Assembly (NCBI GenBank): GCA_021521415.1
Contig: JAIQDT010000674.1
Location: 310,001 to 374,000 of the forward strand
DNA length: 64,000 nt
Direction: 5' to 3'
Origin: Bidens hawaiensis
Lineage: Eukaryota; Streptophyta; Magnoliopsida; Asterales; Asteraceae
Part shown: positions 23,332 to 64,000 of the stretch, one piece after another
How the letters are laid out: the number at the start of each line of letters is the position of its first letter
Position numbering within the stretch: position 1 is the stretch's first letter
Translations under genes and position numbers: made by a program
Notes under the pieces: generated by a model
What the model was told of the DNA's origin: nothing
What the model saw: the letters and a program-made list of their open reading frames with translations, nothing else
Databases searched by the model: none

Positions 23332-23535
23332 TAATGTTTTCTGATGGAACTCTTAAAATCAGTCAGTCACATGCAGGTTATTTTTAACTTTGAGTTTTGT
23401 ATATTCATTTATTTAAATGTTTAATTGTGTATTTTATTATGTAATCTAAGGTACATTTGTTTTGTATGTATGGTGGCTGGATTCAAATGGCTCACAACTC
23501 TTTATCTCCATTATTATTAAAGACTGTTGGTAAGT

Positions 23536-24493
23536 TGAAGAGGTAGGTCCCAGCAGAGCCCAGTTGGACCCGCAAGACTCACCTTAAACAGGGACGTCTG
23601 CGCAGAGACCAACTGGATCCGCAGGACCAACCATGCTCAGAGACGTGACGTCCTTACGCGCAGTACGCAAGCTGGTCCCGCAGGAAATGCCTCCCAATGG
23701 TGAAGGACTCCGCCTGTCCCCGCAGCCTCGGATACAAGCCATTAGGGAAGGCCACCCGCGCAGCATGGCTACACGCACAAGGCACTTAGCTCTCAATCGT
23801 TCAGTGTCACCTGAAGGAATGAGCCAAGCCGGGAGCAATCCCGCACAGAGGCGGGAGGGGGAATACTCCCGCCCAAATAAGCCAGTCCGTATACTGAAGG
23901 ATCTTTTACTGTACCTGACGAGGTATGGGCAAAAGATCTGATCAGAGATGCGACAGCTCACTGACAGCAGCATGGCAGACAGCACGCCACAGCACTGTGA
24001 CCAATAGCCGCCGCCTACCCACCAACTCCTGCCATACCACGTGCCTAGCCTGTAGTTGGCAGAAGAGGAAGAGTGCACGACACGCCTGCTCTGTGTCAGA
24101 CGCTACCTATCCACCACTCACAGGCAGGGCACGTGCATAGGTTACAGTTGGTAGCGTGTTGGGCCGGCTAAACCCCTTGGAAACCTACCTTCGGCTATAA
24201 ATACCACAAATGGTATGATCATATCTTATCATATTATCATCATATATACCTGATATCTGCTCTAGCAATCTCTTAATATACTTTTATATTTAAAGAGCAA
24301 TCTAGTCTGATTCTCACGCCGGAGGGTGGTCACAAGGAGGAACCCCCCCCCTTCTCAGTGACGAGCTCACGGTGTCTGTTTTGCAGGTTATCAGAAGAAC
24401 CATCTTCCAAGGGTCTAACCCCTCGTGGGAAACATCTCTCCAACCCCCAGGTTACCAGTAACCTGCCCGGGGTCGTGGGTTAGTGTTTCTTCA
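23536..24493 (+). mobile_element. 5' LTR
   Basis: 958 bp. By direct reading it matches the 3' LTR except for one small cluster near the end (GTCGTGGGTTAG here, GTCCGGTTAG there). TATAAATA at 24196-24203 is the likely core promoter for the sense transcript. Frames on both strands inside the LTR are chance shadows that are simply repeated in the 3' LTR. Confidence 0.93.
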
Positions 24494-24510
24494 TTGGCGC
24501 CATCCGTGCA
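24494..24510 (+). promoter_or_regulatory. primer-binding site
   Basis: TTGGCGCCATCCGTGC begins at the base after the LTR. TGGCGCC matches the acceptor end of tRNA-Asp; the following bases do not, so the exact primer tRNA is uncertain. The same site occurs at 62806 in the second family member. Confidence 0.7.
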
Positions 24511-24561
24511 TAAAGCTAGAACTACAATTTTCTCCAGTTTTTTCAAAACTTTATACAAAAG

Positions 24562-26016
24562 ATGGTTAGAGAAATTCCGGTAACCACAACCCCAGCTATT
24601 GGGGGGAATACCGGCAACACAGTTTTTACAAACACTACTCCGGCTACCGAAGCCGGAGCAAGTGAAGTAAATTTTACGAACACTACCCCACTTACTAAAG
24701 CAGGGGCAAGTGCAGTAAATGACCGCCTACTGGGATCCACCGATACCCAGTTTGAAAAACGAAGACTCCCCCGCCAGACTCTCGACGAAGTCAAGGCATG
24801 GGCGGAGGCACGACAAAAGGAATTCCAGGCTGAGTTGAACGAACGCTTGCGTTCCGTGCAACAGGCCGACGAATTCGAATACTGGGAGGATGACTCGGAG
24901 GAATCCGACTCCGACGCGAACCCTCGTCATAAGGCAAAAGGGAAGCGTAAAGAAACGGAAACCCAACCGAAAAGGCATTTTGGACAAGCCTTCAAACCAA
25001 AAAGCATAGATGGAAGTCCACGAGACTTCTCTAAAACGTTCAGACCAAACGTTACAAATGCAGGAACGTCCAAATTTGCAAGGGACATTGCTGAAGCAAT
25101 TGCCCCGAAAAGTGCTAAACAAATGCCTAACATAGGCACATATGACGGCCTATCTGATCCAGACGATCATTTGAACAGGTTCATAGCGGGGGCAACCGTT
25201 AGCAATTGGACGGAACCCACGTGGTGTTACATGTTCCAAATGACGCTGGTGGGGGCTGCTAGGGCTTGGTTTGATCGTTTACCGGTTAACCACATTTACG
25301 ACTGGGCAGACTTCCAGCAGAAGTTTAGCCAACACTTCAGCCAGCAGCGAAAGTATACCGAGGAGCAATGGACAATCCTCAAATGCACACGGGAAGAAGA
25401 TGAATCTTTGCCAAACTTCATCACTCGCTTCAACTCAAAGAAGTTAAGTTTGGGCAATATCAGCGAGGATCTTGTTCGCGCAGCCTTCATCCAGGGCGCG
25501 CAAGACCCAGAGCTTATCCGCACCCTAACGGGTAAAGATGGAATGCCATCCACATGGGATGGCATCATGACAGCAGCCAAACGCTATGCGGAAACGGAGA
25601 AGCAACTGGGTAGAGACCTTCCGCAGAACACAAACCTTTACACCCAGAGGACGAGAGAGGACAACGTCCTCACCGCCCGATTGAACAAAAAACGGAAGCA
25701 AGGCATTTGGCAGTCAAGGGTAAACTTTGACACCTCATCCGGCTTACAGCACCGATTGGGTGAAAGGGATAATGTAAAGCCGCACCGGAACTCCAGATGG
25801 ACGCCACTTACCAAAAGCGTCACTGACATATTTGCTACTGAGGAGCTCCCATGGCCAAAGCCTCCAGTAATCCGGCATCGTCACGATGCTGATCGGAGCA
25901 AGTACTGTGACTATCACAGAACAAAAGGCCACAACACTGAAGAATGCATAGACGTAAAAGACATGGTCGAAACATTCGTCAGAGATGGGACGCTCGCGCA
26001 CCTCGTGGCGAAATAA
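24562..26016 (+). CDS. gag: retroelement Gag polyprotein (capsid and zinc knuckle)
   Basis: 484 codons, ATG at 24562, about 68 bp after the LTR; the upstream sequence has no in-frame alternative. Residues ~1-60 contain Thr/Ala-rich near-repeats (TEAGAS..., TKAGAS...). Residues ~60-185 are charged. From about residue 188 (MPNIGTYDGLSDPDDHLNRF) comes the plant Retrotrans_gag capsid region, including AARAWFDRLP and EDESLPNFITRF. Near residues 449-462 CDYHRTKGHNTEEC is a zinc knuckle of the CX2HX4HX4C variant common in Tat/Ogre-type Gag. The frame is uninterrupted. It should package the element RNA into virus-like particles in the cytoplasm. The usual downstream protease is absent. A near-identical but truncated copy begins at 62871. 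Confidence 0.93.
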   Translation: MVREIPVTTTPAIGGNTGNTVFTNTTPATEAGASEVNFTNTTPLTKAGASAVNDRLLGSTDTQFEKRRLPRQTLDEVKAWAEARQKEFQAELNERLRSVQQADEFEYWEDDSEESDSDANPRHKAKGKRKETETQPKRHFGQAFKPKSIDGSPRDFSKTFRPNVTNAGTSKFARDIAEAIAPKSAKQMPNIGTYDGLSDPDDHLNRFIAGATVSNWTEPTWCYMFQMTLVGAARAWFDRLPVNHIYDWADFQQKFSQHFSQQRKYTEEQWTILKCTREEDESLPNFITRFNSKKLSLGNISEDLVRAAFIQGAQDPELIRTLTGKDGMPSTWDGIMTAAKRYAETEKQLGRDLPQNTNLYTQRTREDNVLTARLNKKRKQGIWQSRVNFDTSSGLQHRLGERDNVKPHRNSRWTPLTKSVTDIFATEELPWPKPPVIRHRHDADRSKYCDYHRTKGHNTEECIDVKDMVETFVRDGTLAHLVAK

Positions 26017-26324
26017 AAGCTAGGCAGGCGAGTGCGTATAGAACCCCAGCTGGGGAAAACACGAACCAATTCCAGCTTCAAAAACGAGACTACATGCTGC
26101 GTAAAGAACGAGATCCCGAACCAGGTGCGTATCGGCTCGATGGCACTCCCATCCCAACATGGAAGGGAGTTCAATTACACAGTTTGCATGTAATCAATTC
26201 CAATTTGTAAAGAGAAGGCCAAGAGCCACTTCTAATGGAAATGATTCTCTTTAAGAATATCGAAGCTGATGATTTTACATTTATACTTTTCTGGACACTA
26301 ATATGCCGGTTTTCACCGCATAAT
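26017..26324 (+). other. post-gag region without protease motif
   Basis: An overlapping 88-codon frame (25944-26210) contains TPIPTWKGVQLHSLHVINSN. I see no aspartic-protease D-T/S-G motif or RT sequence. It may be the stump left where pol was lost. Confidence 0.5.
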
Positions 26325-26738
26325 TACGTGAAGTCATTGCATGGGAAGGCGGTCCTACCCGCACGAACCCAATAACGTGACAAACCTTCACGCAGGTCAG
26401 TTGAAGGGGAAAAAGTTCAGCACCCAAAAATGAAAGTGCCGGTCTATCCGCATGAATCATTAAGGAAACTGAATAATAACCTGTCAACAACCGCGCGTCG
26501 AACGGTTAAAACTATCCAACACTGGTGACGACATTCACATTACGTGAAGTCGTTGCGTGGGAAGGCGGTCTTACCCGCACGAACCCAATAACGTGGCAAA
26601 CCTTCACGCAGGTCAGTTGAAAGAGTTCATCCCATTAAATGAAAGTGCCGGTCTATCCGCATGAATCATGAAAGGAAAATGAACACTAACCTATCGACAA
26701 CCGCGCGTCGAACGGTTCAAAACAAAATTCTTAAAAAG
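26325..26738. repeat. tandem array, ~217-bp unit, two copies
   Basis: Unit begins ACGTGAAGTCRTTGCRTGGG at 26325 and 26542. It contains TACCCGCACGAACCCAATAA, AAGTGCCGGTCTATCCGCAT and CAACCGCGCGTCGAACGGTT. Non-coding. Confidence 0.85.
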
Positions 26739-27340
26739 ATGAGAAAAACCTACACGCAGGTCAGATAAGGGTAAAGTTCTGCCATCCTACTAAGTGCAAG
26801 TGACGGTTCTACCCGCACAATCACGAAAGAGGAAGCAAAACTTCACCTATTATCAACCACGTTCAAAGGTTAACTTATCCTCAAAAGATGAGAAAAACCT
26901 ACACGCAGGTCAGATAAAGGTAAAGTTCTGCCATCCTACTAAGTGCAAGTGACGGTTCTACCCGCACAATCACGAAAGAGGAAGCAAAACTTCACACCTA
27001 TTATCAACCACGTTCAAAGGTTAACTTATCCTCAAAAGATGAGAAACCTACACGCAGGTCAGATAAGGGTAAAGTTCTGCCATCCTACTAAGTGCAAGTG
27101 ACGGTTCTACCCGCACAATCACGAAAGAGGAAGCAAAACTTCACACCTATTATCAACCACGTTCAAAGGTTAACTTATCCTAAAAAAGTAAGAAAAACCA
27201 GCACGCAGGTTAGATAAAAGTTAAAGTTTAGCCATCCTACCAAGTGCAAGTGACGGTTCTACCCGCACAATCACAAAGGAGGAAGCGAAACTTTAACCCA
27301 CTATCAACCACGTTCAAAGGTTCTTATTCTGAACACTTGG
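26739..27340. repeat. tandem array, ~150-bp unit, four copies
   Basis: Units start at about 26739, 26887, 27038 and 27188 (GATGAGAAAAACCTACACGC), each with GTGACGGTTCTACCCGCACA and CAACCACGTTCAAAGGTTA. The fourth copy is the most diverged. The words CACGCAGGT and ACCCGCAC are shared with the adjacent 217-bp unit, so the two unit types are probably related. The array lies between the ends of the convergent gag and antisense gene. Confidence 0.9.
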
Positions 27341-27535
27341 AAAATTGCTAATTTAAACTAAGTATGCAAGTCATAAGTTTATAAAGCAAGGAACCCAAAG
27401 AAGGAAATAACAGTCTTATACGCAAAAAGATTAATATTTCAATGATGTATTACAACAGTGGCCGGGTAACTACCCGCCTAAAAGAAATCTATACAAAGCT
27501 AAGTCTATCCTAGCGGTGGGAAGAGATCTTCAGGA

Positions 27536-30514
27536 TCAGGCTTCAGGGCCACCTCCGCTTGGACCAGCACCGTCTGAGCGTGGCTGCCCAAGGAAAGCCT
27601 TAAGGATGTTTAGCCCATCATCAGCAGCAGCAGCCTCATTCACCTTCTCCACCACTGGATGCGGGAAGGCAGCGTACTGGTTCACAGCTTGGTCATAAGC
27701 AGCTTCAGTATTAACATTGAATAAAGGGAAGTTGGAGGGCGGAAAGCCTCTCTCAGCAAACCCTAGACCAAGCAGGAAGCCAGTCTTCTCCCCATCCTCA
27801 TGAGAAGCGTTGAGGGCTGCGCTCATCGCATCGTCATAAGAGGTCTCTGAAAGGACCCGACGCGCAACCTACAAAAGAATACAAGTTAGAACATTTTCTA
27901 ATTACGAGCGGAAAGCGTAAAGAAAAAGATAAAGATACCTGAGGCAACGCTTCTCGAAGCAGCCATTGGAGGGTAGCTTGACTTTCTTTGTAAGCACGTT
28001 CGGCTCCGTTTTTATCAAGGTTGGCAAGTTGAACTTCCTTGGCGGCAGCCTCTTCGACGCTTTTGAGTTTCCTTTCAGTGCGGTCAAGCACCCCCCTCTG
28101 GTCAAGGATCTCCTGCAGCTTCTTGGCATCTTCCATTGCCAAGGCGTCATGAGCATGCTGAAGAGCCTTTAATTTGCATTTAAGCTGCTCATTCTCTTCG
28201 CGAAGCGGCTCAACAACAGCTTCAGCCTTGGCAGCCCTCTCAGTTGAGTTTCGCGCAGTCTCCTTGGCCAGCCGAAGCTGTTCATTCACAGCTTGGGCAG
28301 CCTTGGAGCGGGCCTCGAGTCGCGCCTGGACTTCAACCTCGAGGGCCTTGAATGCCTTCTCCTTCTCGGCTGCGGCAGCGGCCAACTGCCGGTTCTCCTC
28401 CCGAAGAGCCCGCGCTTCAGATACATCTTTGGCGCGAGCTGCTTTTAACTTGTCGTTTTCACGACAAAGCAGCTCGACGCGGGGCTGCGTCCGGGCCTGG
28501 AGAACCCGAAGCTCATTGGTTAGCCTACCCTCTTGGTAGCTAGCCATGGCTTCCCCCAACGCACCATGAGGAGCAGCGTGGCGAGCCCAGTCCACGCACT
28601 CCACAGGGGTACGAAGGGTTGTTCCTCGGCGTATGTTCCATCTTGGAACATACACTTCATTGGAATCCGACACTGCAAAAGAAACAAAGGCAGTTAGGAA
28701 AAGATGATAAAAATATATAAGGGAAAAAGAACCCTACGTACCTGTAGGGTCAATAACAGGCCGATAACCGCCAAACCCATCACCTGAACCTAAAGGAAAT
28801 CCATCCAACAGGTCAGGCAGACGGGAAGGTGGCGTAGATCGGCGGGAAGCCCGGCGCGTACCTGATGGTCCGGCCGTCGGTGCCGGTGGCGCAGGTATAG
28901 TGGCAGCCGCCGTGGTAGCCATTGTTGGCGCCGTCTCCTCAGCAACAGTAACCGCCGGCTCCGTGAAAGATGCTGTAAAAATTGCACTCACGGCCGGCGG
29001 AGACACCTTCTCAGCTGGAACAGCCTCAGGAAGGCTGGAACCAGCGGAAGCAAGCGTAGACGCCTGGGTCGACGCCTCGGGAAGGCTGACCGAGCCTACC
29101 GTCATTGGCGGGGGAATACTTACTCCAACTCCACCCTGGAATGCGTCAACATCCACACCTGCACAAGCAAAAGTGTTAGAAATTTATTTGAAACAACAAA
29201 TCTAGACAAGAATTATGGGGGTACTTACGGGGTTTCTTGAGCTTGAACGCACGGACGAGCGGGGGCGAACCCGATGGAGCCGGCCTCTTGACACCGGTAA
29301 CCGTCGTCGTCGCTGCCTCCCCGGAGGTAACACCTGCAGCCTCCGGAGCGGTGGTCTCCTCACCACCGGGCTTCCCCGCCACCTCTGCATTATCTGACTC
29401 CGAGTCAGATAGGACTACCGGGTCGGCCGTAGAGGCCACATTCTCCTTGCCCTTCCCGACGGCAGCCTTTTTCTTCCGCACCAGTGGAGGACCTTCTGCG
29501 GATTCCTCAGAAGAAGAAATGTCATGAACTCCAGCAGCAGGCACAGCATTGAGAGGTTCAGGGTAGAAGATAGGCTTACCTGGCCGTCGGTGGCTCAGGA
29601 TCTCTTGGCCTGGCGGGTAAACCTCCACGAACCGACCCGCGGTCTGCTCTAAGATGGGCAACTCGTTCTCGTCCAGAGCACGAGTACCCATCCGCGCGGG
29701 ACCATCTTCCTCCCGCGGGTTCAGGAGCGACTGAAGATCGTTCCCCTCTGAAATCAACAAGAAAGTTAGTAAAAATCGAAGTCAGCAAAATGAAACAAGA
29801 CGTACCATAAGGGACAGAGTTCGAACCATATTCAAGGACGATCGGAACCTTATCCGCATTTGCCGCCTTCCACACCCGGCTCATCCCCAACATCACCATC
29901 GCCGACTCCGGAAAACGGAAAACCGGGGACTGGACCCGGGAAATCTTCGAGAACCATTCCGCCTCCTCGTAGTTGAGGGCGGGAAGGTTCGGAAGCGCCT
30001 GGCCATTCTTGAACTTCATGGCGATGGGGATGGCGCGAGCGGATATGAAGAAGAACTCTCTTCTCCATGAGCGAAGACTCCGCTCGGTGGTACAAATCTT
30101 TAAACCCTTGATACGGGTTGTAAGAGTGTACCACCCTTGGATGCACCTCCATGTATAGAAGGTCATCAGGCGATCAACGAGGGGCTCAAGGCCCAGTATC
30201 CGGCACACCCACTCAAAGTGCCGGACCTTGGCAATGGCCATGGGGTGCACCTCTGTCAGGTGCACACCGTGCCTCTCTAGGACACGGTACACAAACTTTG
30301 TCAACGGAAACCTAAGGTTCCCGTAGACAAAGAATGCAGCATAAACCCCGATCTTGCCACTAGGGGCATCGTACACAGTATGGTGGGGTTCAGGAAACTC
30401 AGGCTCGAGAGACTCGAGCATGAACTTCCTGATGATATACTGGTACAGATCGACAGGAAGAGAGCACTGGCATTCGCCAGCAGTCTTCTGGTCATCAGCA
30501 TCATGAGAAGACAT
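27536..30514 (-). CDS. antisense five-exon gene inside the retroelement
   Basis: Predicted exons on the minus strand: 30514-29806, 29747-29229, 29158-28742, 28672-27939, 27868-27536. Introns of 58, 70, 69 and 70 bp have GT-AG ends (donors GGTACGT, GTAAGTAC, GGTACGT, GGTATC; acceptors TTTCAG, TGCAG, TTGCAG, TTGTAG). All phases match, giving 903 codons and a stop. Residues 1-236 (FPLTKFVYRVLERHGVHLTE, HFEWVCRILGL, RSLRSWRREFFF) resemble the plant 'putative gypsy-type transposase' domain (Transposase_28-like). Residues ~240-550 are Ser/Pro/Ala-rich and acidic (ISSSEES, VLSDSESDNAE) with basic clusters (RKKK, KLKKPR) that could act as nuclear signals. Residues ~600-770 form a long coiled coil (ARALREENRQLAAAAAEKEK). 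The last exon is Ala/Gly-rich. Function is unknown; no enzymatic motif is seen. Confidence 0.8.
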
Positions 30515-30636
30515 GGTGGAAGAAAGACGAAAAGAGATTTCAGGGTAATGCTTTACTGAACAGAAAAATTCGCCGGAAATTACTTGAGAAGAAGAGATGA
30601 AAGTGGAAAGTGTGAATTGCAAATAACCCTCTCCCC

Positions 30637-30645
30637 CTTTATATA
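30637..30645 (-). promoter_or_regulatory. TATA box of the antisense gene
   Basis: TATATAAAG on the minus strand, followed by a pyrimidine/purine-rich leader and the ATG at 30514, about 125 bp downstream. A start site near 30610 would give a ~95-nt 5' UTR. It indicates the antisense gene has its own promoter rather than relying on the LTR. Confidence 0.65.
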
Positions 30646-30984
30646 GTAATCGCAATTAATGCGGTGAATTTAATGCGGAGGAGAGAGAAATCAAATGTGC
30701 AATGAAACTATGACACGTGGCAAAAAGCAAGCTGGCAACAGCTGTTGAAAGGACGTGTGCCAGTAATTTCGCGGCCACGCGCCCGAAAAATCGCTCCCAC
30801 GCGCCTGAAAAAGCGACTGGAATGACCATGTTCTGTCACGTCACCATAACTTCCTGCACGTCCTGACACAGTCAGAAGAAACCGTCGCACGACGTTTCAG
30901 AGGTTTATCTTTTCACCAACTCTTCGAATTTCAAAATTCAAAATTCGAAAGTATTAAAAAGTAAGCGGGAAAATACCCCTTACC

Positions 30985-31375
30985 CCTTGGCAAGCAAGTA
31001 ACCGTAAGACGGATGCGGGTACAGTGTAAAGGCAAAACCCTTCACATACCTAGCACCCGCAGGGAATTGAAGCCAAATAAACCTTGGCAAACAAGTAACC
31101 GTAAGCCGGCTGCGGGTACAGTGTTAAGGCAAAACCCTTCACATACCTAGCACCTGCAGGGAATTGAAGCCAAGAACCTTGGTGAACAAGTAACCGTAAG
31201 ACGGATGCGGGTACAGTGTTAAGGCAAAACCCTTCACATACCTAGCACCCGCAGGGAATTGACGCCAGGAATACCTTGAGAGTAAAGTAACCGTAAGACG
31301 AGCGCAGGTACAGTGTTAAGGCAAAAACCCTTCACATACCTAGCGCTCCGCTGGGAATTGAAACCAAGAAGGATC
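30985..31375. repeat. tandem array, ~95-bp unit, four copies
   Basis: Units begin near 30985, 31082, 31177 and 31274. Each carries AAGTAACCGTAAGACGGATG-like sequence, GGGTACAGTGT, AAACCCTTCACATACCTAGC and CAGGGAATTGA. The array is upstream of the antisense promoter and just inside the 3' LTR, and the unit differs from the arrays at 26325-27340. Confidence 0.9.
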
Positions 31376-31754
31376 TTCTGGGCAATGCTTGCGGAAACGG
31401 AAATAGCATCCCCGCATAGCGGGAACATCGAGAACTACGTTGTTTGAAGCTCCAGGATGGAATTGGTGGTCTTAACATAATTGATCACTATGTTCAGAAC
31501 TACCAAAACCTCATGGAAAATACATACAACTGGGACTCAATGCTCCTGACTTGCGAGGAGGTTACAGACCTACCCGCATCATACCCAAAGACCAAGCAGG
31601 AAACTCGGGCATTTCTGCAAGTGACAAGGACTTCCGCGGAAAGAATCCCCATGGAAAACCTTACAAAACCCTTTTCAAAACCCCTTGCTTAAAGTCCAAA
31701 AGTTCACCTCACTTCATTAAACACTCATGAGAAGAACATTGGACTGGGGGGACT
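31376..31754 (+). other. 3' internal region and polypurine-like tract
   Basis: An 82-codon frame (31444-31692) has no recognised domain; LPASYPKTKQETRAFLQVTR could be a scrap of coding sequence. The region ends GGACTGGGGGGACT directly before the 3' LTR, the expected position of the plus-strand primer tract. Confidence 0.55.
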
Positions 31755-32710
31755 TGAAGAGGTAGGTCCCAGCAGAGCCCAGTTGGACCCGCAAGACTCA
31801 CCTTAAACAGGGACGTCTGCGCAGAGACCAACTGGATCCGCAGGACCAACCATGCTCAGAGACGTGACGTCCTTACGCGCAGTACGCAAGCTGGTCCCGC
31901 AGGAAATGCCTCCCAATGGTGAAGGACTCCGCCTGTCCCCGCAGCCTCGGATACAAGCCATTAGGGAAGGCCACCCGCGCAGCATGGCTACACGCACAAG
32001 GCACTTAGCTCTCAATCGTTCAGTGTCACCTGAAGGAATGAGCCAAGCCGGGAGCAATCCCGCACAGAGGCGGGAGGGGGAATACTCCCGCCCAAATAAG
32101 CCAGTCCGTATACTGAAGGATCTTTTACTGTACCTGACGAGGTATGGGCAAAAGATCTGATCAGAGATGCGACAGCTCACTGACAGCAGCATGGCAGACA
32201 GCACGCCACAGCACTGTGACCAATAGCCGCCGCCTACCCACCAACTCCTGCCATACCACGTGCCTAGCCTGTAGTTGGCAGAAGAGGAAGAGTGCACGAC
32301 ACGCCTGCTCTGTGTCAGACGCTACCTATCCACCACTCACAGGCAGGGCACGTGCATAGGTTACAGTTGGTAGCGTGTTGGGCCGGCTAAACCCCTTGGA
32401 AACCTACCTTCGGCTATAAATACCACAAATGGTATGATCATATCTTATCATATTATCATCATATATACCTGATATCTGCTCTAGCAATCTCTTAATATAC
32501 TTTTATATTTAAAGAGCAATCTAGTCTGATTCTCACGCCGGAGGGTGGTCACAAGGAGGAACCCCCCCCCTTCTCAGTGACGAGCTCACGGTGTCTGTTT
32601 TGCAGGTTATCAGAAGAACCATCTTCCAAGGGTCTAACCCCTCGTGGGAAACATCTCTCCAACCCCCAGGTTACCAGTAACCTGCCCGGGGTCCGGTTAG
32701 TGTTTCTTCA
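31755..32710 (+). mobile_element. 3' LTR
   Basis: 956 bp, essentially identical to the 5' LTR. The second family member (62783-62800) also has the GTCCGGTTAG form, so the change lies in the 5' LTR. Confidence 0.93.
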
Positions 32711-34157
32711 TAAGTTTTAGGGCAAAATGGTCCAACTTTAAAGCCAAAAATGTTATATTTGCTTTAAGGGTAAAATGGCCCAAAGATAAGGCTACAAATG
32801 TTATATTTTATTTACTTTAATGGTAAAATAGCCCTAAGTTAAGGCCAAAACTGTTATATTAGTGGCTCACAACTCTTTATCTCCACCGTTAAAGGTTACT
32901 GGTAAGTTTTAATAGCAAAATGGTCCAATTTTAACGCTAAAAATTATATATTTGCTTTAAGGGTAAAATAGTCCAAAGTTAAGCCCAAAACTGTTATAAT
33001 ATGATTACCTCTATTCAGGTTTTGAGTTGCAGTTTTGTGAGTAAGTTTGTGTGAATTGCCCTTTGTTTTAGATGGGTAAAGATTCTGAACATATTGTTGA
33101 TTACACTACTCCTTGTTATTGTGAAAAGAATGACACTATAGTTTGGTCAATTTACATGCCTACAGTTTTCATCATATGTTGTGTTTCCATACTTGATAAC
33201 CCATTTCTCTATATAATGATTACAGTTTGTTTATTTGTAGGCACTTCTCGAGTACGAAATACATAAGGTCCAGATTGGTGAGCTTGCATTCCCTCTTGCA
33301 ACTGTCTTCCCAGAGGCCCATATTCTTGAAAATGAGGTTTGCTGATAGAATTTTCAGTTTTTATATATGATTACTGTGTTTGAGTCAATTCATATCTATT
33401 TATTATGCATATACCACAGGGCACACATATTTGATTTTATAAATGGCTTGTGCAGGCAAACGGTCATCAAACCCCAGGTTCAGGATCGGGACCAGGTAGG
33501 GCACGGAGGGACGCTGCAGCTCGAGCCATGCAGGGTTAGCATGCTCAACGTCTTTTAGGCTTTGGTGGGTTAGCGAACCAATCACGAAATACTTAACACC
33601 ATAATTAAGAGGCTTGTAAATGAAGCGAATGAACACAAATAGAGCATGTTGGTTTTCATTCGTTTAACTTTAAACGAACAAATGATTGAACACGCACATT
33701 TAAACAAACGAGATTTTCTAGATCTGTTTTGTGTTTGGATTTTGGGAAATTTTGTTGTCTGTTAATGCGTTAATGGTGTGATTTAAATTTAATGAAAGGG
33801 TAGTGTTTTTGTTTTTGCAAATATAAGTTGGAGTGTTGTGATCTTGTTATGGATGATTAAAAAATATTTAGTGGAGTGACCTTTATTAGTATTAAATGAT
33901 TAAAACGAATATCTTTAAAATATAAAGAAGTGAACAATGCGGCAAACCCGAACCCGAGACCCGTTTTTTCGCATTATTGGTCAATTATTTCTTGTGTTCT
34001 AGATTGAAACAAAGACATTTTTTTTTGTTTTTGATTGCAGCTGTAAGTTGAAGACATGGCTGAAGGATAGTGGATATTTTGCAGCTATATCCTTCACTGC
34101 ATATTTTGAACTTTCAAGTTGATGGTTCTTGTTTTTCTTACTGAATTACTGATTTGT
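32711..34157 (+). other. exon-like fragments in non-genic DNA
   Basis: The TGGCTCACAACTCTTTATCTCC...GGTAAGTTTTA...AAAATGGTCCAA unit of about 195 bp is present in two copies. One is split by the retroelement (23489-23535 plus 32711-32860) and the second is at 32863. Frames such as 33072-33266 and the block at 33241-33340 (ALLEYEIHKVQIGELAFPLA) look like exons of an unidentified gene, with no continuous gene model. Confidence 0.4.
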
Positions 34158-34620
34158 TATGCTAATTTACTGCTTAGCAGTAACTTGGGCACGCAACTCG
34201 ACTATTCTTGTTTCTCAAACTGCTTGCAAGATGAATTTATTATTATTAATCATTTGAGTTTTTTTGCTATCACTAGAACAAGTCTTGTCTCTCAAATTAT
34301 CTCACTTGCATAAGGAGGATATTGCTGTTGTTGCAGGCGCACGTATAGTTGCAATAATCCAGGTTAGTCACAACTCACAGTCATATTTATTATGCTAATT
34401 TACTGCTTAGCAGTAACTTGGGCACGCAACTCGACTATTCTTGTTTCTCAAACTGCTTGCAAGATGAATTTATTATTATTAATCATTTGAGTTTTTTCGC
34501 TATCAATAGAACAAGTCTTGTCTCTCAAATTATCTCACTTGCATAAGGAGGATATTGCTGTTGTTGCAGGCGCACGTATAGTTGCAATAATCCAGGTTAG
34601 TCACAACTCACAGTCATATT
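34158..34620. repeat. 233-bp tandem duplication
   Basis: The unit from TATGCTAATTTACTGCTTAG to CACAACTCACAGTCATAT occurs at 34158 and 34391 with only a couple of base differences, so it is recent. It includes an exon-like boundary TTGTTGCAG|GCGCACGTATAG in both copies. Confidence 0.9.
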
Positions 34621-42417: not shown

Positions 42418-43951
42418 TTACTTGCAACTTAAAGGTTCATGCTCGTTCACCATGGTATTTGCCACATCCTTTATCACCTCCCAAGCACTAATCACATGGC
42501 GTTCTTCTGTGAGTGTGCTTCCCACCACAAACCTCAACATATAAGTCCCACCAACCGCGGTGTGAGTCAAGTAAACTCGCCCCGTCGAGTTGACTCGCTC
42601 AAGTAGCTTTTTGTTAAGCAAGTCAGTATACCCGGAGTCAAACCCGTTGAACTGTTTTAACCGAAAACACACCAAGGAAAACTGTCGTGGCACAACAACC
42701 TCAAACTTCACATCCAACTTCACTAGCTGTTCAAAGGTTATCGCCATCTGGACATCTGACCGAATGTGATTTTGTAAATTTTCAACACCGTAACTACGTA
42801 GGATGAACCATAAACGTAGAGACTTGAACCTTCGAGCCGTCCCGATTTGCCAATCCTTGTAACTCACCACCGAGTTTGACTCGCTATGCTCGTTTTTTAA
42901 GTACTCGGGATTGGTTCGCATCACATTCACAATCAAATTAGGGTTTTTTCACCCATAAACAACAACACTCCGCGTAACTGAGTAGCCATTTATGCGGACT
43001 CAAACTCAGTGAATCAACTTTCTCAACTCCATCAAGATAATGTCTATACTCCGGACATATGCATGCGTTTCCCCCATAAGCCGCGTCCACATGAACCCAC
43101 ATATTATACTTATTTGCCACGTCAACAAGTGCGTTAACGGGGTCCACTGCGGTCGTGGAGGTGGTCCCAATTGTAAGGCATAGAAAAAGCGGAACCAGCC
43201 CTTGTTCCATGTCAGCGTCAATGACTTTTCGAAGGGTTTTAGGATCAAGAGAAAACCCATTCTCCAAACATGTCGGTACCGACCGAATATTCTTTGGATC
43301 AATACCGGCTAGCTTGCATACTTTCTTGAACATAACATGAGTTTGATCTGACCCGTACACTACTAACTTTCCAATATGCTCGACTCCAATAGTATTAAGT
43401 ACATGATCACGAGCTGCAACTAGGGTGCACAAAGTCGACTCACTTGTGGTGGATTGCAAAACCCCGCCACCCGAACCCGAAAACATGAAGCTTTTTGGGA
43501 GACGAAGCATAACCGCCAGCCAATCCATCACCACCATCTCAAGCTCAGTTGCAGCCGTTGAAGCAACCCAATTGAACCCGACCGCATTAAAACACGTGCA
43601 CAACATTTCGCCAATGAATGTGGCCGAGCTCACGGAAGCAGGAAAGTATGCAAAAAAGTTTGGGCTTAGCCAATGTGTCATCCCAGGGATAATATCCTTT
43701 TGGACATCTTTTAGGATCGTGTCGAATGATTCGGGTGTGTCGGGTGGGGTTTGGGGCAAGCGGTTTTTGAGGTAACCGGGTTGAACTTGGCTAAGAACCG
43801 GGTAGTTTTCGATATTATTGTAGTAATCAGCGATGAAATCGACCGCTTTGTGGGCTTTGGCGCGAAAGTTTTCGGGATTGAGGTGGTTGAAGCCTTTGGC
43901 ATAATCGGATAATTGTGGGAATGTGATAAAGTCGGAAGGAGGGCTTCCCAT
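42418..43951 (-). pseudogene. TYDC: tyrosine/aromatic L-amino-acid decarboxylase, one-base frameshift
   Basis: PLP-dependent group II decarboxylase (tyrosine/DOPA decarboxylase type), making tyramine or related amines in the cytosol. Intronless, as plant TYDC genes usually are. ATG at 43951. The first frame (337 codons) holds the N-terminal [19 protein letters not shown] motif, the [12 protein letters not shown] loop, [16 protein letters not shown] and SPHKWLL with the PLP-binding lysine at residue 321. It then ends at a TAA because an A6 run (42944-42949, T6 on the plus strand) puts the frame out by one. The rest continues in the next frame (RTNPEYL..., YKDWQIGTARRFKSLRLW) to a normal C-terminus. 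Allowing for one extra base the length is about 510 residues, normal for the family. Tyr in NPEYL, 29 residues after the lysine, is the catalytic-loop tyrosine of true decarboxylases (Phe in aldehyde synthases). It is a pseudogene unless the extra A is a sequencing error. Confidence 0.9.
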
Positions 43952-44028
43952 TTTGCGGGTGTGAACTGAACAAAAGGTTAGACGTAAGCGATTTAGGATA
44001 TAGACAAAGTAAGGTGAAGAGTGGTTAT

Positions 44029-44040
44029 CTATTTATAAAT
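44029..44040 (-). promoter_or_regulatory. TATA box of the decarboxylase gene
   Basis: TTTATAAATAGA on the minus strand, about 80 bp upstream of the ATG at 43951. A start site near 44000 would leave a ~50-nt leader. A hAT MITE lies only about 180 bp further upstream. Confidence 0.65.
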
Positions 44041-55627: not shown

Positions 55628-55983
55628 GGGTTCGTGAAACCCCATGAAGATTTCCTATGTATGAGTGTTAGGGGTGTTAGTTTATGGAAAGTACCCGATA
55701 AGCGCCCTCAAGGAAACCAACTGGTGCCCTAACACCCTTATCGGTTTAATGTTATTTTATAATCATTTGTGTGTTTTTACATGATCCAGTTTTAACAAAC
55801 CCATGGGGTTCGTGAAACCCCATGAAGATTTCCTATGTATGAGTGTTAGGGGTGTTAGTTTATGGAAAGTACCCGATAAGCGCCCTCAAGGAAACCAACT
55901 GGTGCCCTAACACCCTTATCGGTTTAATGTTATTTTATAATCATTTGTGTGTTTTTACATGATCCAGTTTTAACAAACCCATG
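55628..55983. repeat. 178-bp tandem duplication
   Basis: Two practically identical units from GGGTTCGTGAAACCCCATGA (55628 and 55806). Each contains a small fold-back GTGTTAGGGGTGTTAG...GTGCCCTAACACCC. The identity points to a recent duplication. Confidence 0.93.
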
Positions 55984-61828: not shown

Positions 61829-62805
61829 TGAAGAGGTAGGTCCCAGCAGAGCCCGGTTGGACCCGCAAGACTCACCTTAAACAGGGACGTCTGCGCAGAG
61901 ACCAACTGGATCCGCAGGACCAACCATGCTCAGAGACGTGACGTCCTTACGCGCAGTACGCAAGCTGGTCCCGCAGGAAAAGCCTCCCAATGGTGAAGGA
62001 CTCCGCCTGTCCCCGCAGCCTCGGATACAAGCCATTAGGGAAGGCCACCCGCGCAGCATGGCTACACGCACAAGGCACTTAGCTCTCGATCATTCAGTGT
62101 CACCTGAAGGAATGAGCAAAGCCGGGAGCAATCCCGCACAGAGGCGGGAGGGGGAATACTCCCGCCCAAATAAGCCAGTCTGTATACTGAAGGATCTTTT
62201 ACTGTACCTGACAAGGTATGGGCGAAAGATCTGATCAGAGATACGACAGCTCACTGATACAGTATGGCGAGCAGCATGCTCCTGTACTGTATCACTATTA
62301 GCCGCTGCCTACTCACCAACTACTGTCATACCACGTGCGTAGCCGGCAGTTGGTGGAAAGGGAATAGTATACAGCAGGCCTGGTCACTATCAGCCGCTGC
62401 CTACCCACCAACTACCAGCAAGGCACGTGCGTAGGCTACTGTTGATGAACAGGAACACTGTTGCAGCTGGCCATACCTCCTTGGAAACCTACCTTCGGCT
62501 ATAAATACCCCAAATGGTATGATCATCTAAACACATTACATTATCTTATATCATCAGAATATACCTGATATCTGCTCTAGCAATCTCTTAATATACTTTT
62601 ATATTTAAAGAGCAATCTAGTCTGATTCTCACGCCGGAGGGTGGTCACAAGGAGGAACCCCCCCCTTCTCAGTGACGAGCTCACGGTGTCTGTTTTGCAG
62701 GTTATCAGAAGAACCATCTTCCAAGGGTCTAACCCCTCGTGGGAAACATCTATCTAACCCCCAGGTTACCAGTAATCTGTCCGGGGTCCGGTTAGTGTTT
62801 CTTCA
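61829..62805 (+). mobile_element. 5' LTR of a second copy of the gag/antisense retroelement family
   Basis: 977 bp, TGAAGAGG...TTCTTCA, strongly similar to the LTR at 23536 except for a diverged stretch at about 62250-62460. It keeps the TATAAATA promoter word near 62502. The flank before it is GCCGC; the other end is outside the window. Confidence 0.92.
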
Positions 62806-62822
62806 TTGGCGCCATCCGTGCA
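62806..62822 (+). promoter_or_regulatory. primer-binding site of the second copy
   Basis: TTGGCGCCATCCGTGC immediately after the LTR, identical to that at 24494. Confidence 0.75.
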
Positions 62823-62870
62823 TAAAGCTAGAACTACAATTTTCTCCAGTTTTTTCAAACTTCTACAAAG

Positions 62871-64000
62871 ATGGTTAGAGAAATTCCGGTAACCACAACC
62901 CCAGCTACTGGGGGGAATACCGGCAACACAGTTTTTACGAACACTACCCCGGCTACCGAAGCCGGGGCAAGTGAAGTAAATTTTACGAACACTACCCCAC
63001 TTACCAAAGCTGGGGCAAGTGCAGTAAATGATCGCCTACTGGGATCCACCGATACCCAGTTTGAGAAACGAAGACTCCCCCGCCAGACTCTCGATGAAAT
63101 TAAGGCATGGGCGGAGGCACGACAAAAGGAATTCCAGGCTGAGTTGGACGAACGCTTGCGTTCCGTGCAACAGGCCGACGAATTCGAATACTGTGAGGAT
63201 GGCTCGGAGGAATCCGACTCCGACGCGAACCCTCGCCATAGGGCAAAAGGGAAGCGTAAGGAAACGGAATCCCAACCGAAAAGGCATTTTGGACAAGCCT
63301 TCAAACCAAAAAGCACAGGTGGAAGTCCACGAGACTTCTCCAAAACGTTCAGACCAAACGTTGCAAATGCAGGAACGTCCAAGTTTGCAAGGGACATTGC
63401 GGAAGCAATCGCCCCAAAGAGTGCCAAACAAATGCCTAACATAGGCACATATGACGGTTTATCTGATCCAGACGATCATTTGAACAGGTTCATAGCGGGG
63501 GCAACCGTCAGCAATTGGACGGAACCCACGTGGTGTTACATGTTCCAAATGACGCTTGTTGGGGCTGCTAGAGCTTGGTTTGATCGTCTACCGGTCAACC
63601 ACATCTACGACTGGGCAGACTTCCAACAGAAGTTTAGCCAACACTTCAGCCAGCAACGGAAGTATACCGAGGAGCAATGGACAATCCTCAAATGCATACG
63701 AGAGGAAGATGAATCTCTGCCAAACTTCATCACTCGCTTCAACTCAAAGAAGCTAAGTTTGGGCAATATCAGCGAAGATCTTGTTCGCGCTGCCTTCATC
63801 CAGGGCGCACATGACCCAGAGCTCATCCGCACCCTAACGGGTAAAGATGGCATGCCATCCACATGGGATGGCATCATGACAGCAGCAAAACGCTATGCGG
63901 AAACGGAGAAGCAACTGGGTAAAGATCTCCCACAGAGCACAAACCTCTACACCCAGAGGACGAGAGAGGACAACGTCCTCACAGCCCGACTAAATAAAAA
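62871..64000 (+). CDS. gag: Gag polyprotein of the second copy, cut by the window end
   Basis: ATG at 62871, 65 bp after the LTR, opens a frame that stays open to the last base (376 codons seen). It matches the 484-codon Gag at 24562 nearly codon for codon: MPNIGTYDGLSDPDDHLNRF, AARAWFDRLP and the capsid region are present, and the zinc knuckle would lie beyond the window. Visible changes are mostly silent or conservative (EYCEDGSEESD here, EYWEDDSEESD there), suggesting that purifying selection has acted on gag in this family. There are no stops or frameshifts in the visible part. Confidence 0.92.
   Translation, partial: MVREIPVTTTPATGGNTGNTVFTNTTPATEAGASEVNFTNTTPLTKAGASAVNDRLLGSTDTQFEKRRLPRQTLDEIKAWAEARQKEFQAELDERLRSVQQADEFEYCEDGSEESDSDANPRHRAKGKRKETESQPKRHFGQAFKPKSTGGSPRDFSKTFRPNVANAGTSKFARDIAEAIAPKSAKQMPNIGTYDGLSDPDDHLNRFIAGATVSNWTEPTWCYMFQMTLVGAARAWFDRLPVNHIYDWADFQQKFSQHFSQQRKYTEEQWTILKCIREEDESLPNFITRFNSKKLSLGNISEDLVRAAFIQGAHDPELIRTLTGKDGMPSTWDGIMTAAKRYAETEKQLGKDLPQSTNLYTQRTREDNVLTARLNK

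What the first reader, a model, noticed from the sequence alone, without database searches (positions are those of the whole stretch)
23536..32710. Young LTR retroelement in which pol is replaced by an antisense multi-exon gene
The element has LTRs, target duplication, primer site and an intact gag, but no pol. Instead it carries a large spliced gene on the opposite strand, convergent with gag. Antisense ORFs near the 3' LTR are known in some Ty3 elements of the Tat lineage, but a complete five-exon antisense gene with its own TATA box in a pol-less, gag-only element is unusual. Keeping introns through an RNA-mediated cycle is only possible because the gene is antisense to the packaged RNA. 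The unit could be a stable carrier system for a gene.
Basis: partly seen in the sequence, partly recalled or inferred. Interest (0 to 1): 0.88.

Follow-up and report, generated by a model that had tools for sequence, protein, structure and literature searches.

The report
Pol-less retrotransposon with spliced antisense gene
This is a plant mobile element that has lost its copying enzymes but still keeps a five-exon gene on its opposite strand; the gene is inherited from pol-bearing relatives, looks maintained by selection, and appears to have been exchanged between full-length and defective elements.

Summary
Window 23536-32710 is a young LTR element (LTRs 958/956 bp, 1 mismatch; TSD TAAGT) with an intact gag, no pol, and a 903-aa, five-exon gene on the opposite strand. 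It is not a one-off. A second copy starts at 61829, and a 31-nt LTR-PBS junction occurs 2,618 times in the genome. Six of six copies sampled from that list share the layout; four of six keep the spliced frame. In 13 elements 52 of 52 introns are GT-AG, and A-versus-B dN/dS is 0.205.

"Pol replaced by a gene" is wrong. One pol-bearing relative (P), with the same PBS and PPT, carries the same antisense gene with the same four introns downstream of pol. So pol was deleted and the gene is older. It weakly matches Transposase_28, whose antisense ORF is a known Retand hallmark. In gag, P is about 79% identical to the pol-less copies, but in the antisense gene P and copy B are 95.7% identical and pair in the tree, which implies recombination.

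What I did not find in the held library is the conserved splicing and its upkeep in an RT-less family, which RT-seeded surveys would miss. No RNA evidence was available.

The parts
23531..23535 (.). target site duplication, left copy (TAAGT)
23536..24493 (+). 5' LTR, 958 bp
24495..24509 (+). primer binding site position (TGGCGCCATCCGTGC; tRNA not identified)
   Evidence: sequence; the same in 10 of 10 fetched copies L041-L050, six of which had been picked by this sequence
24562..26016 (+). gag, 484 aa, Retrotrans_gag (PF03732)
26010..26133 (+). scar of the pol deletion: 124 bp here where relative P has about 3.8 kb with pol
   Evidence: BLAST breakpoints
26134..26252 (+). stretch matching sequence downstream of the integrase ORF in P (85.8%)
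26323..27322 (.). repeat arrays (about 216-bp x2, then 149-bp x3.9)
27536..27868 (-). antisense gene exon 5 and stop
27939..28672 (-). antisense gene exon 4 (charged; coiled coil is my reading, not computed)
28742..29158 (-). antisense gene exon 3 (low-complexity linker by eye)
29229..29747 (-). antisense gene exon 2; ends in a basic KR..KLKKPR stretch
29806..30514 (-). antisense gene exon 1 with ATG; Transposase_28-like stretch (PF04195, below the gathering score)
30638..30645 (-). TATATAAA, 131 bp upstream of the antisense ATG; present in 6 of 6 copies looked at (A, B, L041-L044)
30985..31367 (.). 97-bp tandem array, about 4 copies
31743..31754 (+). polypurine tract ACTGGGGGGACT
   Evidence: sequence; found in 9 of 10 fetched copies L041-L050, not in L048
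31755..32710 (+). 3' LTR, 956 bp
32711..32715 (.). target site duplication, right copy (TAAGT)
61829..64000 (+). second copy (B) of the same family, cut by the window end; it continues to L010:627 with TSD GCCGC

Best explanation
The element belongs to a large non-autonomous family of Tat/Retand-type Ty3 retrotransposons that lost pol by an internal deletion but kept gag and the lineage's antisense Transposase_28-like gene. The sense genomic RNA runs from LTR to LTR, is packaged, and is reverse transcribed and integrated in trans by a pol-bearing relative such as P, which shares its LTR ends, PBS and PPT (inferred). The antisense gene has its own promoter and is spliced from four introns (inferred from conservation). 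Because its transcript is the opposite strand, splicing never touches the packaged RNA, so introns persist (inferred). Its product has an N-terminal Transposase_28-like domain, a flexible linker with basic stretches and a charged C-terminal half. It probably acts as an element-encoded nuclear regulator or accessory protein rather than as cargo (inferred). Selection keeps it even in lineages without pol (shown by dN/dS), and it moves between pol-less and pol-bearing families by template switching in mixed particles (mosaicism shown for one P copy; route inferred).
For: Copies: 2,618 exact LTR-PBS 31-mers, reversed-pattern control 0; 150 scored exon-1 matches, listed as full length, 100% identical and without stops, the best of 25,149 first-look candidates. 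Six copies from the 31-mer list: 6 of 6 same layout without pol, 4 of 6 intact spliced frame. A, B and four copies from the exon-1 list: 6 of 6 intact spliced frames. Splice sites: 52 of 52 introns GT-AG in 13 elements; intron lengths vary off multiples of 3 while exon length differences in intact copies are multiples of 3. Selection: 15 of 15 pairs among the six intact A, B, L045, L047, L049, L050 have dN/dS 0.197-0.278; per exon A-B 0.12, 0.32, 0.58, 0.14, 0.13. Relative P: gag, RVT_1, RNase H, RVT_3, rve, same antisense gene, LTRs with 3 mismatches, TSD ATGGT. Mosaic: gag sites A=B but not P 232, B=P but not A 41, A=P but not B 33; antisense gene B=P but not A 388, A=B but not P 63, A=P but not B 50; P pairs with B at support 1.000 in the antisense tree.
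Against: No RNA data, so transcription, splicing and translation are untested. The PF04195 match of A is below Pfam's gathering score (22.5 vs 26.2 bits, E 1.4e-4). The structure model was useless (pLDDT 33), so nothing here supports DNA binding. Two of six copies from the 31-mer list (L046, L048) and two of 28 placed partial loci (L027, L035, the latter also with a non-canonical lifted splice site) have frameshifts. Among very similar copies dN/dS in exons 2-3 is 0.80 at dS 0.015, as expected after insertion or for a loose linker, so selection is clear only between lineages. Splice sites were placed by alignment to A. The mosaic rests on one P copy. Helper use by P is inferred; other RT-bearing elements share the LTR-end/PBS 20-mer (L056-L059). 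No search for spliced (processed) copies was answered.
Confidence: 0.85

Rival explanations
1. Host gene captured in antisense and carried by a pol-less vector.
For: Own TATA, five exons and selection on the frame look like a cellular gene.
Against: The same gene with the same four introns sits downstream of pol in relative P, and it has a (weak) match to the Retand-associated Transposase_28 family (PMC11963269 states that no similarity to TRP28 was found outside TEs).
Confidence: 0.05
2. The antisense frame is kept mainly because it is selected in pol-bearing elements and borrowed by recombination, and because many copies are young; the protein does nothing for the pol-less family itself. (Not exclusive of the mosaic part of the best explanation.)
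For: Many copies are nearly identical and the module is mosaic with P.
Against: Pol-less copies that differ from each other by dS 0.17-0.46 keep the frame with dN/dS about 0.2, and gag, in which P is only about 79% identical, is kept too (A-B dN/dS 0.08). Antisense identity of the pol-less copies to P ranges from 84.0 to 95.7%, so they are not all recent imports from P's lineage.
Confidence: 0.2
3. The antisense unit works mainly as an RNA (dsRNA or siRNA regulation of the sense transcript), the protein being secondary.
For: Convergent sense and antisense transcription is implied by the layout; PMC7264820 raises this possibility.
Against: Constraint is on codons: third positions carry most changes in exons 1, 4 and 5, which an RNA-only role does not predict.
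Confidence: 0.1

Closest known systems
Retand-lineage Ty3 retrotransposons with antisense TRP28 ORF (Vicient 2025, PMC11963269; parts 1-3 of 5 of the text and term passages read)
   Same: Antisense Transposase_28 ORF between coding region and 3' LTR, tandem arrays, LTR size in the reported range; some members are non-autonomous.
   Different: That survey was seeded with RT, so RT-less elements could not appear; ORFs were taken from ORF Finder and the term 'intron' does not occur in the text.
Maize Cinful/Zeon (RLG00001; PMC8547701, passages)
   Same: Gag-only members that need pol from others; Cinful-1 is placed in Retand in PMC6317226 (passage).
   Different: There GAG and POL are split between members; here the one pol-bearing relative read in full, P, has both gag and pol.
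TR-GAG elements (PMC9784723, passages)
   Same: Two LTRs around a gag-only sense coding region.
   Different: TR-GAGs are described there with one ORF; this one also carries an intron-bearing antisense gene under selection.
Maize Grande gene23 (via PMC7264820, parts 1-2 of 3 read; the original paper is not held)
   Same: Antisense accessory gene with its own promoter, nuclear protein, according to that review.
   Different: Homology to the gene here was not tested; whether gene23 has introns was not seen.

Membership tests
Retand (Tat) lineage | RT phylogeny places it in Retand | not tested
   A has no RT; P's RT was not placed in a tree with named references
Retand (Tat) lineage | second RNase H (aRH) between RH and integrase (also true of Ogre, PMC6317226) | tested here: met
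   in relative P only: RVT_1 and RNase H (L055), then RVT_3 and rve (L064); not testable in A; that RVT_3 stands for aRH is my reading
Retand (Tat) lineage | antisense ORF with Transposase_28 before the 3' LTR | tested here: inconclusive
   PF04195 E 1.4e-4, 22.5 bits against a gathering score of 26.2; position and strand fit
Retand (Tat) lineage | long region with tandem arrays before the 3' LTR (arrays in about half of the surveyed elements); 5-bp TSD | tested here: met
   arrays in A; 5-bp TSD in A, B, L041-L044, L049, L050 and P, the nine whose both ends were read
TR-GAG | two LTRs and only a GAG ORF inside | tested here: not met
   gag and LTRs present, pol absent, but a second, antisense gene is present
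Cinful/Zeon-type split pair | GAG and POL on different members, fewer than 1% with both | tested here: inconclusive
   relative P has both gag and pol, which speaks against it; proportions genome-wide were not counted

The most novel reading that the evidence does not exclude
A parasite-helper pair of retrotransposon families held together by a shared, spliced, antisense accessory gene. The pol-less family keeps the gene under selection because its protein acts on the element itself (for example to help its RNA, or to keep it from silencing). The gene circulates between helper and parasite as an exchangeable module, and antisense placement is what lets an RNA-replicated element keep a multi-exon gene for long periods.
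Probability: 0.4. Interest if true: 0.8.

Novelty: new variant of a known kind. Interest (0 to 1): 0.55.

Why it matters
The role of the antisense gene is called unknown in the two papers read most fully, and one of them asks that antisense and spliced transcripts be looked for. A pol-less family that keeps this gene in several lineages separates the gene's use from reverse transcriptase and integrase. The exact exon model makes RNA-seq and localisation tests straightforward. The mosaic pattern is a genomic record that pol-bearing and pol-less elements have exchanged sequence.

Tried and rejected
Host gene capture or replacement of pol: rejected after relative P was found. A protein search with the 903-aa product (database of about 5.8 billion proteins; 7,994 candidates scored) returned nothing at E 1e-3; so did the PDB with exon 1 and NCBIfam with exon 1 and gag. 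How well plants are covered by the first was not checked. A single-sequence structure model failed (pLDDT 33), so no fold search was run. A degenerate YVDDM-type pattern (motif recalled) gave 0 matches, control also 0; L056 reads YMDDFVIKS, so the motif probably did not fit, but whether such degenerate patterns are searched fully was not checked. The TGGTATCAGAGC search (250 sites) was not relevant. The searches for exon 3-exon 4 spliced (processed) copies and for the unspliced comparator did not complete. The species was not identified.
Full report
Element A (23536-32710) has two LTRs with a single mismatch and two gap columns, a 5-bp TSD, a PBS position, a PPT and an intact 484-aa gag. With a substitution rate recalled from rice (1.3e-8 per site per year) one mismatch in about 956 sites means tens of thousands of years, a rough figure only. 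The longest sense ORF between gag and the 3' LTR is 145 aa, opposite the antisense exons. The antisense gene reads as five exons and 903 codons with four AT-rich GT-AG introns.

It is a family, not an oddity. Copy B begins in the same window at 61829 and has TSD GCCGC and LTRs of 977 and 976 bp with 4 mismatches and one gap. Exon 1 searched against the whole 3.47-Gb genome gave 150 scored matches out of 25,149 first-look candidates, listed as full length without stops; these are the best ones by design. A 31-nt LTR-PBS junction occurs 2,618 times, with 0 for the reversed control; a 20-nt core occurs 13,263 times. Six copies taken from the 31-mer list, not selected on the antisense gene, align to A along their length and are all pol-less with the same layout; L045-L048 were cut in the 3' LTR by the fetched range. 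Four of the six keep the spliced antisense frame; L046 and L048 have frameshifts. L049 (1 LTR mismatch) and L050 (10 mismatches) have TSDs CATGG and GCGGG. Four copies chosen from the exon-1 list (L041-L044) have TSDs, 0, 0, 0 and 1 LTR mismatches, and the antisense frame intact in 4 of 4, with dN/dS against A of 0.21-0.32. In L043 the first gag frame ends at 350 aa while the antisense gene is intact, and L044 has a different gag start. Of 30 partial loci, exons 1-3 could be placed in 28: 26 were intact with canonical sites, two were frameshifted (L027; L035, also with one non-canonical lifted site), and two could not be placed in full (L016, L025). Three of the 30 (L011, L014, L017) are the same places as L041, L042 and L043.

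The intron model is supported by comparison, not by RNA. In 13 elements (A, B, P, L041-L050) 52 of 52 introns, placed by alignment to A, begin with GT and end with AG, although A and B introns differ at 49 of 256 aligned sites. Intron lengths vary (57-62, 62-74, 69-79 and 68-73 bp in these 13), while exon length differences in intact copies are multiples of three. The TATATAAA box is present in 6 of 6 copies examined. A-B dN/dS is 0.205 for the whole gene and 0.08 for gag (NG86). By exon it is 0.123, 0.322, 0.581, 0.144 and 0.132. All 15 pairs among A, B, L045, L047, L049 and L050 lie between 0.197 and 0.278; L046 and L048 were left out because their frames are broken. Among 32 intact sequences, which include the three duplicated places, exons 2-3 give a ratio of mean dN to mean dS of 0.80 at a dS of 0.015 when B is left out and 0.57 with it. 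That is a result against a simple picture; at such short distances it says little about long-term selection.

Where the gene comes from was settled by looking at LTR-PBS sites that lack the 31-mer. At ten of them I read the stretch 2.2-3.8 kb downstream of the PBS. Three show the antisense exons (L051, L053, L054), one the 3' end of a similar element (L052), five an RT-like sense frame (L055-L059; in L056 broken into two frames) and one neither (L060); Pfam found RVT_1 in the four tested, L055 and L057-L059. The element around L055, called P, has LTRs of 1019 and 1023 bp with 3 mismatches, TSD ATGGT, the same PBS and PPT, and a gag 75% identical in protein to that of A. It also has RT and RNase H, RVT_3 and integrase, and then repeats and the antisense gene with 914 codons and introns of 60, 73, 73 and 72 bp. 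The ORF coordinates of the three pieces are consistent with one open gag-pol frame (arithmetic, not a joined sequence). A matches P up to the end of gag and again 3.8 kb further on in P but only 124 bp further on in A. So pol was lost by deletion and the antisense gene was already there. This rests on one P copy read in full.

The two halves of these elements have different histories. Between P and B the LTR-gag half is about 73-75% identical but the repeat-plus-antisense half 92.6%. Between A and B it is the other way: 92.5% and 85.2%. In a three-way site count gag has 232 sites with A=B but not P, 41 with B=P but not A and 33 with A=P but not B; the antisense gene has 63, 388 and 50. In the gag tree (unrooted, 13 sequences) P is on a branch of 0.235 that joins beside L046, L048 and L050, and its identity to every pol-less copy is 78.4-79.7%. 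In the antisense tree it pairs with B at support 1.000. Recombination between pol-bearing and pol-less elements is the plain reading. Copy-choice during reverse transcription of two RNAs in one particle is the usual route (established retroviral and retrotransposon biology), and it would fit P-type elements having mobilised the pol-less family; direction and helper identity are inferred.

Compared with what is known: in Vicient 2025 all but two of the 63 Retand clusters shown encode an antisense Transposase_28 domain, and it is called a characteristic of the lineage (PMC11963269). Neumann 2019 found Transposase_28 in 23% of Retand elements (PMC6317226, section read), with extra ORFs of at least 250 codons predicted by getorf (passage). 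Gag-only members that depend on others are known as TR-GAG (PMC9784723, passages) and as Zeon with Cinful (PMC8547701, passages). The parts that I did not find in the held library are the conserved multi-exon structure of the Transposase_28 gene and its maintenance in an RT-less family (searches; most subscription papers, including the Grande gene23 paper, are not held). Recombination between members of an LTR retrotransposon family is known (PMC5668417, search listing and abstract start only).

Verdict: a new variant of a known kind.

Noticed in passing
window 42421-44032, minus strand: Two overlapping frames that together cover a pyridoxal-dependent decarboxylase (PF00282, E 7.9e-83 and 1e-22); the frame changes between them, so the gene may be interrupted or a pseudogene.
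   Followed up: no
L043 (full-length copy): First gag frame ends at 350 aa while the antisense gene is intact: gag and antisense gene can decay independently.
   Followed up: partly
L061, L058, L062 (C3:413700-424300): A second pol-bearing family with the same LTR-end/PBS 20-mer; its gag is about 36% identical to A's over 351 columns, and an antisense stretch has 31% identity over 90 columns to the exon-1 region.
   Followed up: partly
window 55628-55983: A 178-bp unit in perfect tandem duplicate (100% matches).
   Followed up: no
window 34152-34620: A 233-bp unit in tandem duplicate (98% matches).
   Followed up: no
window 32708-33001: Element A inserted into a locally repeated AT-rich unit whose neighbouring copy shows the empty site.
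   Followed up: yes
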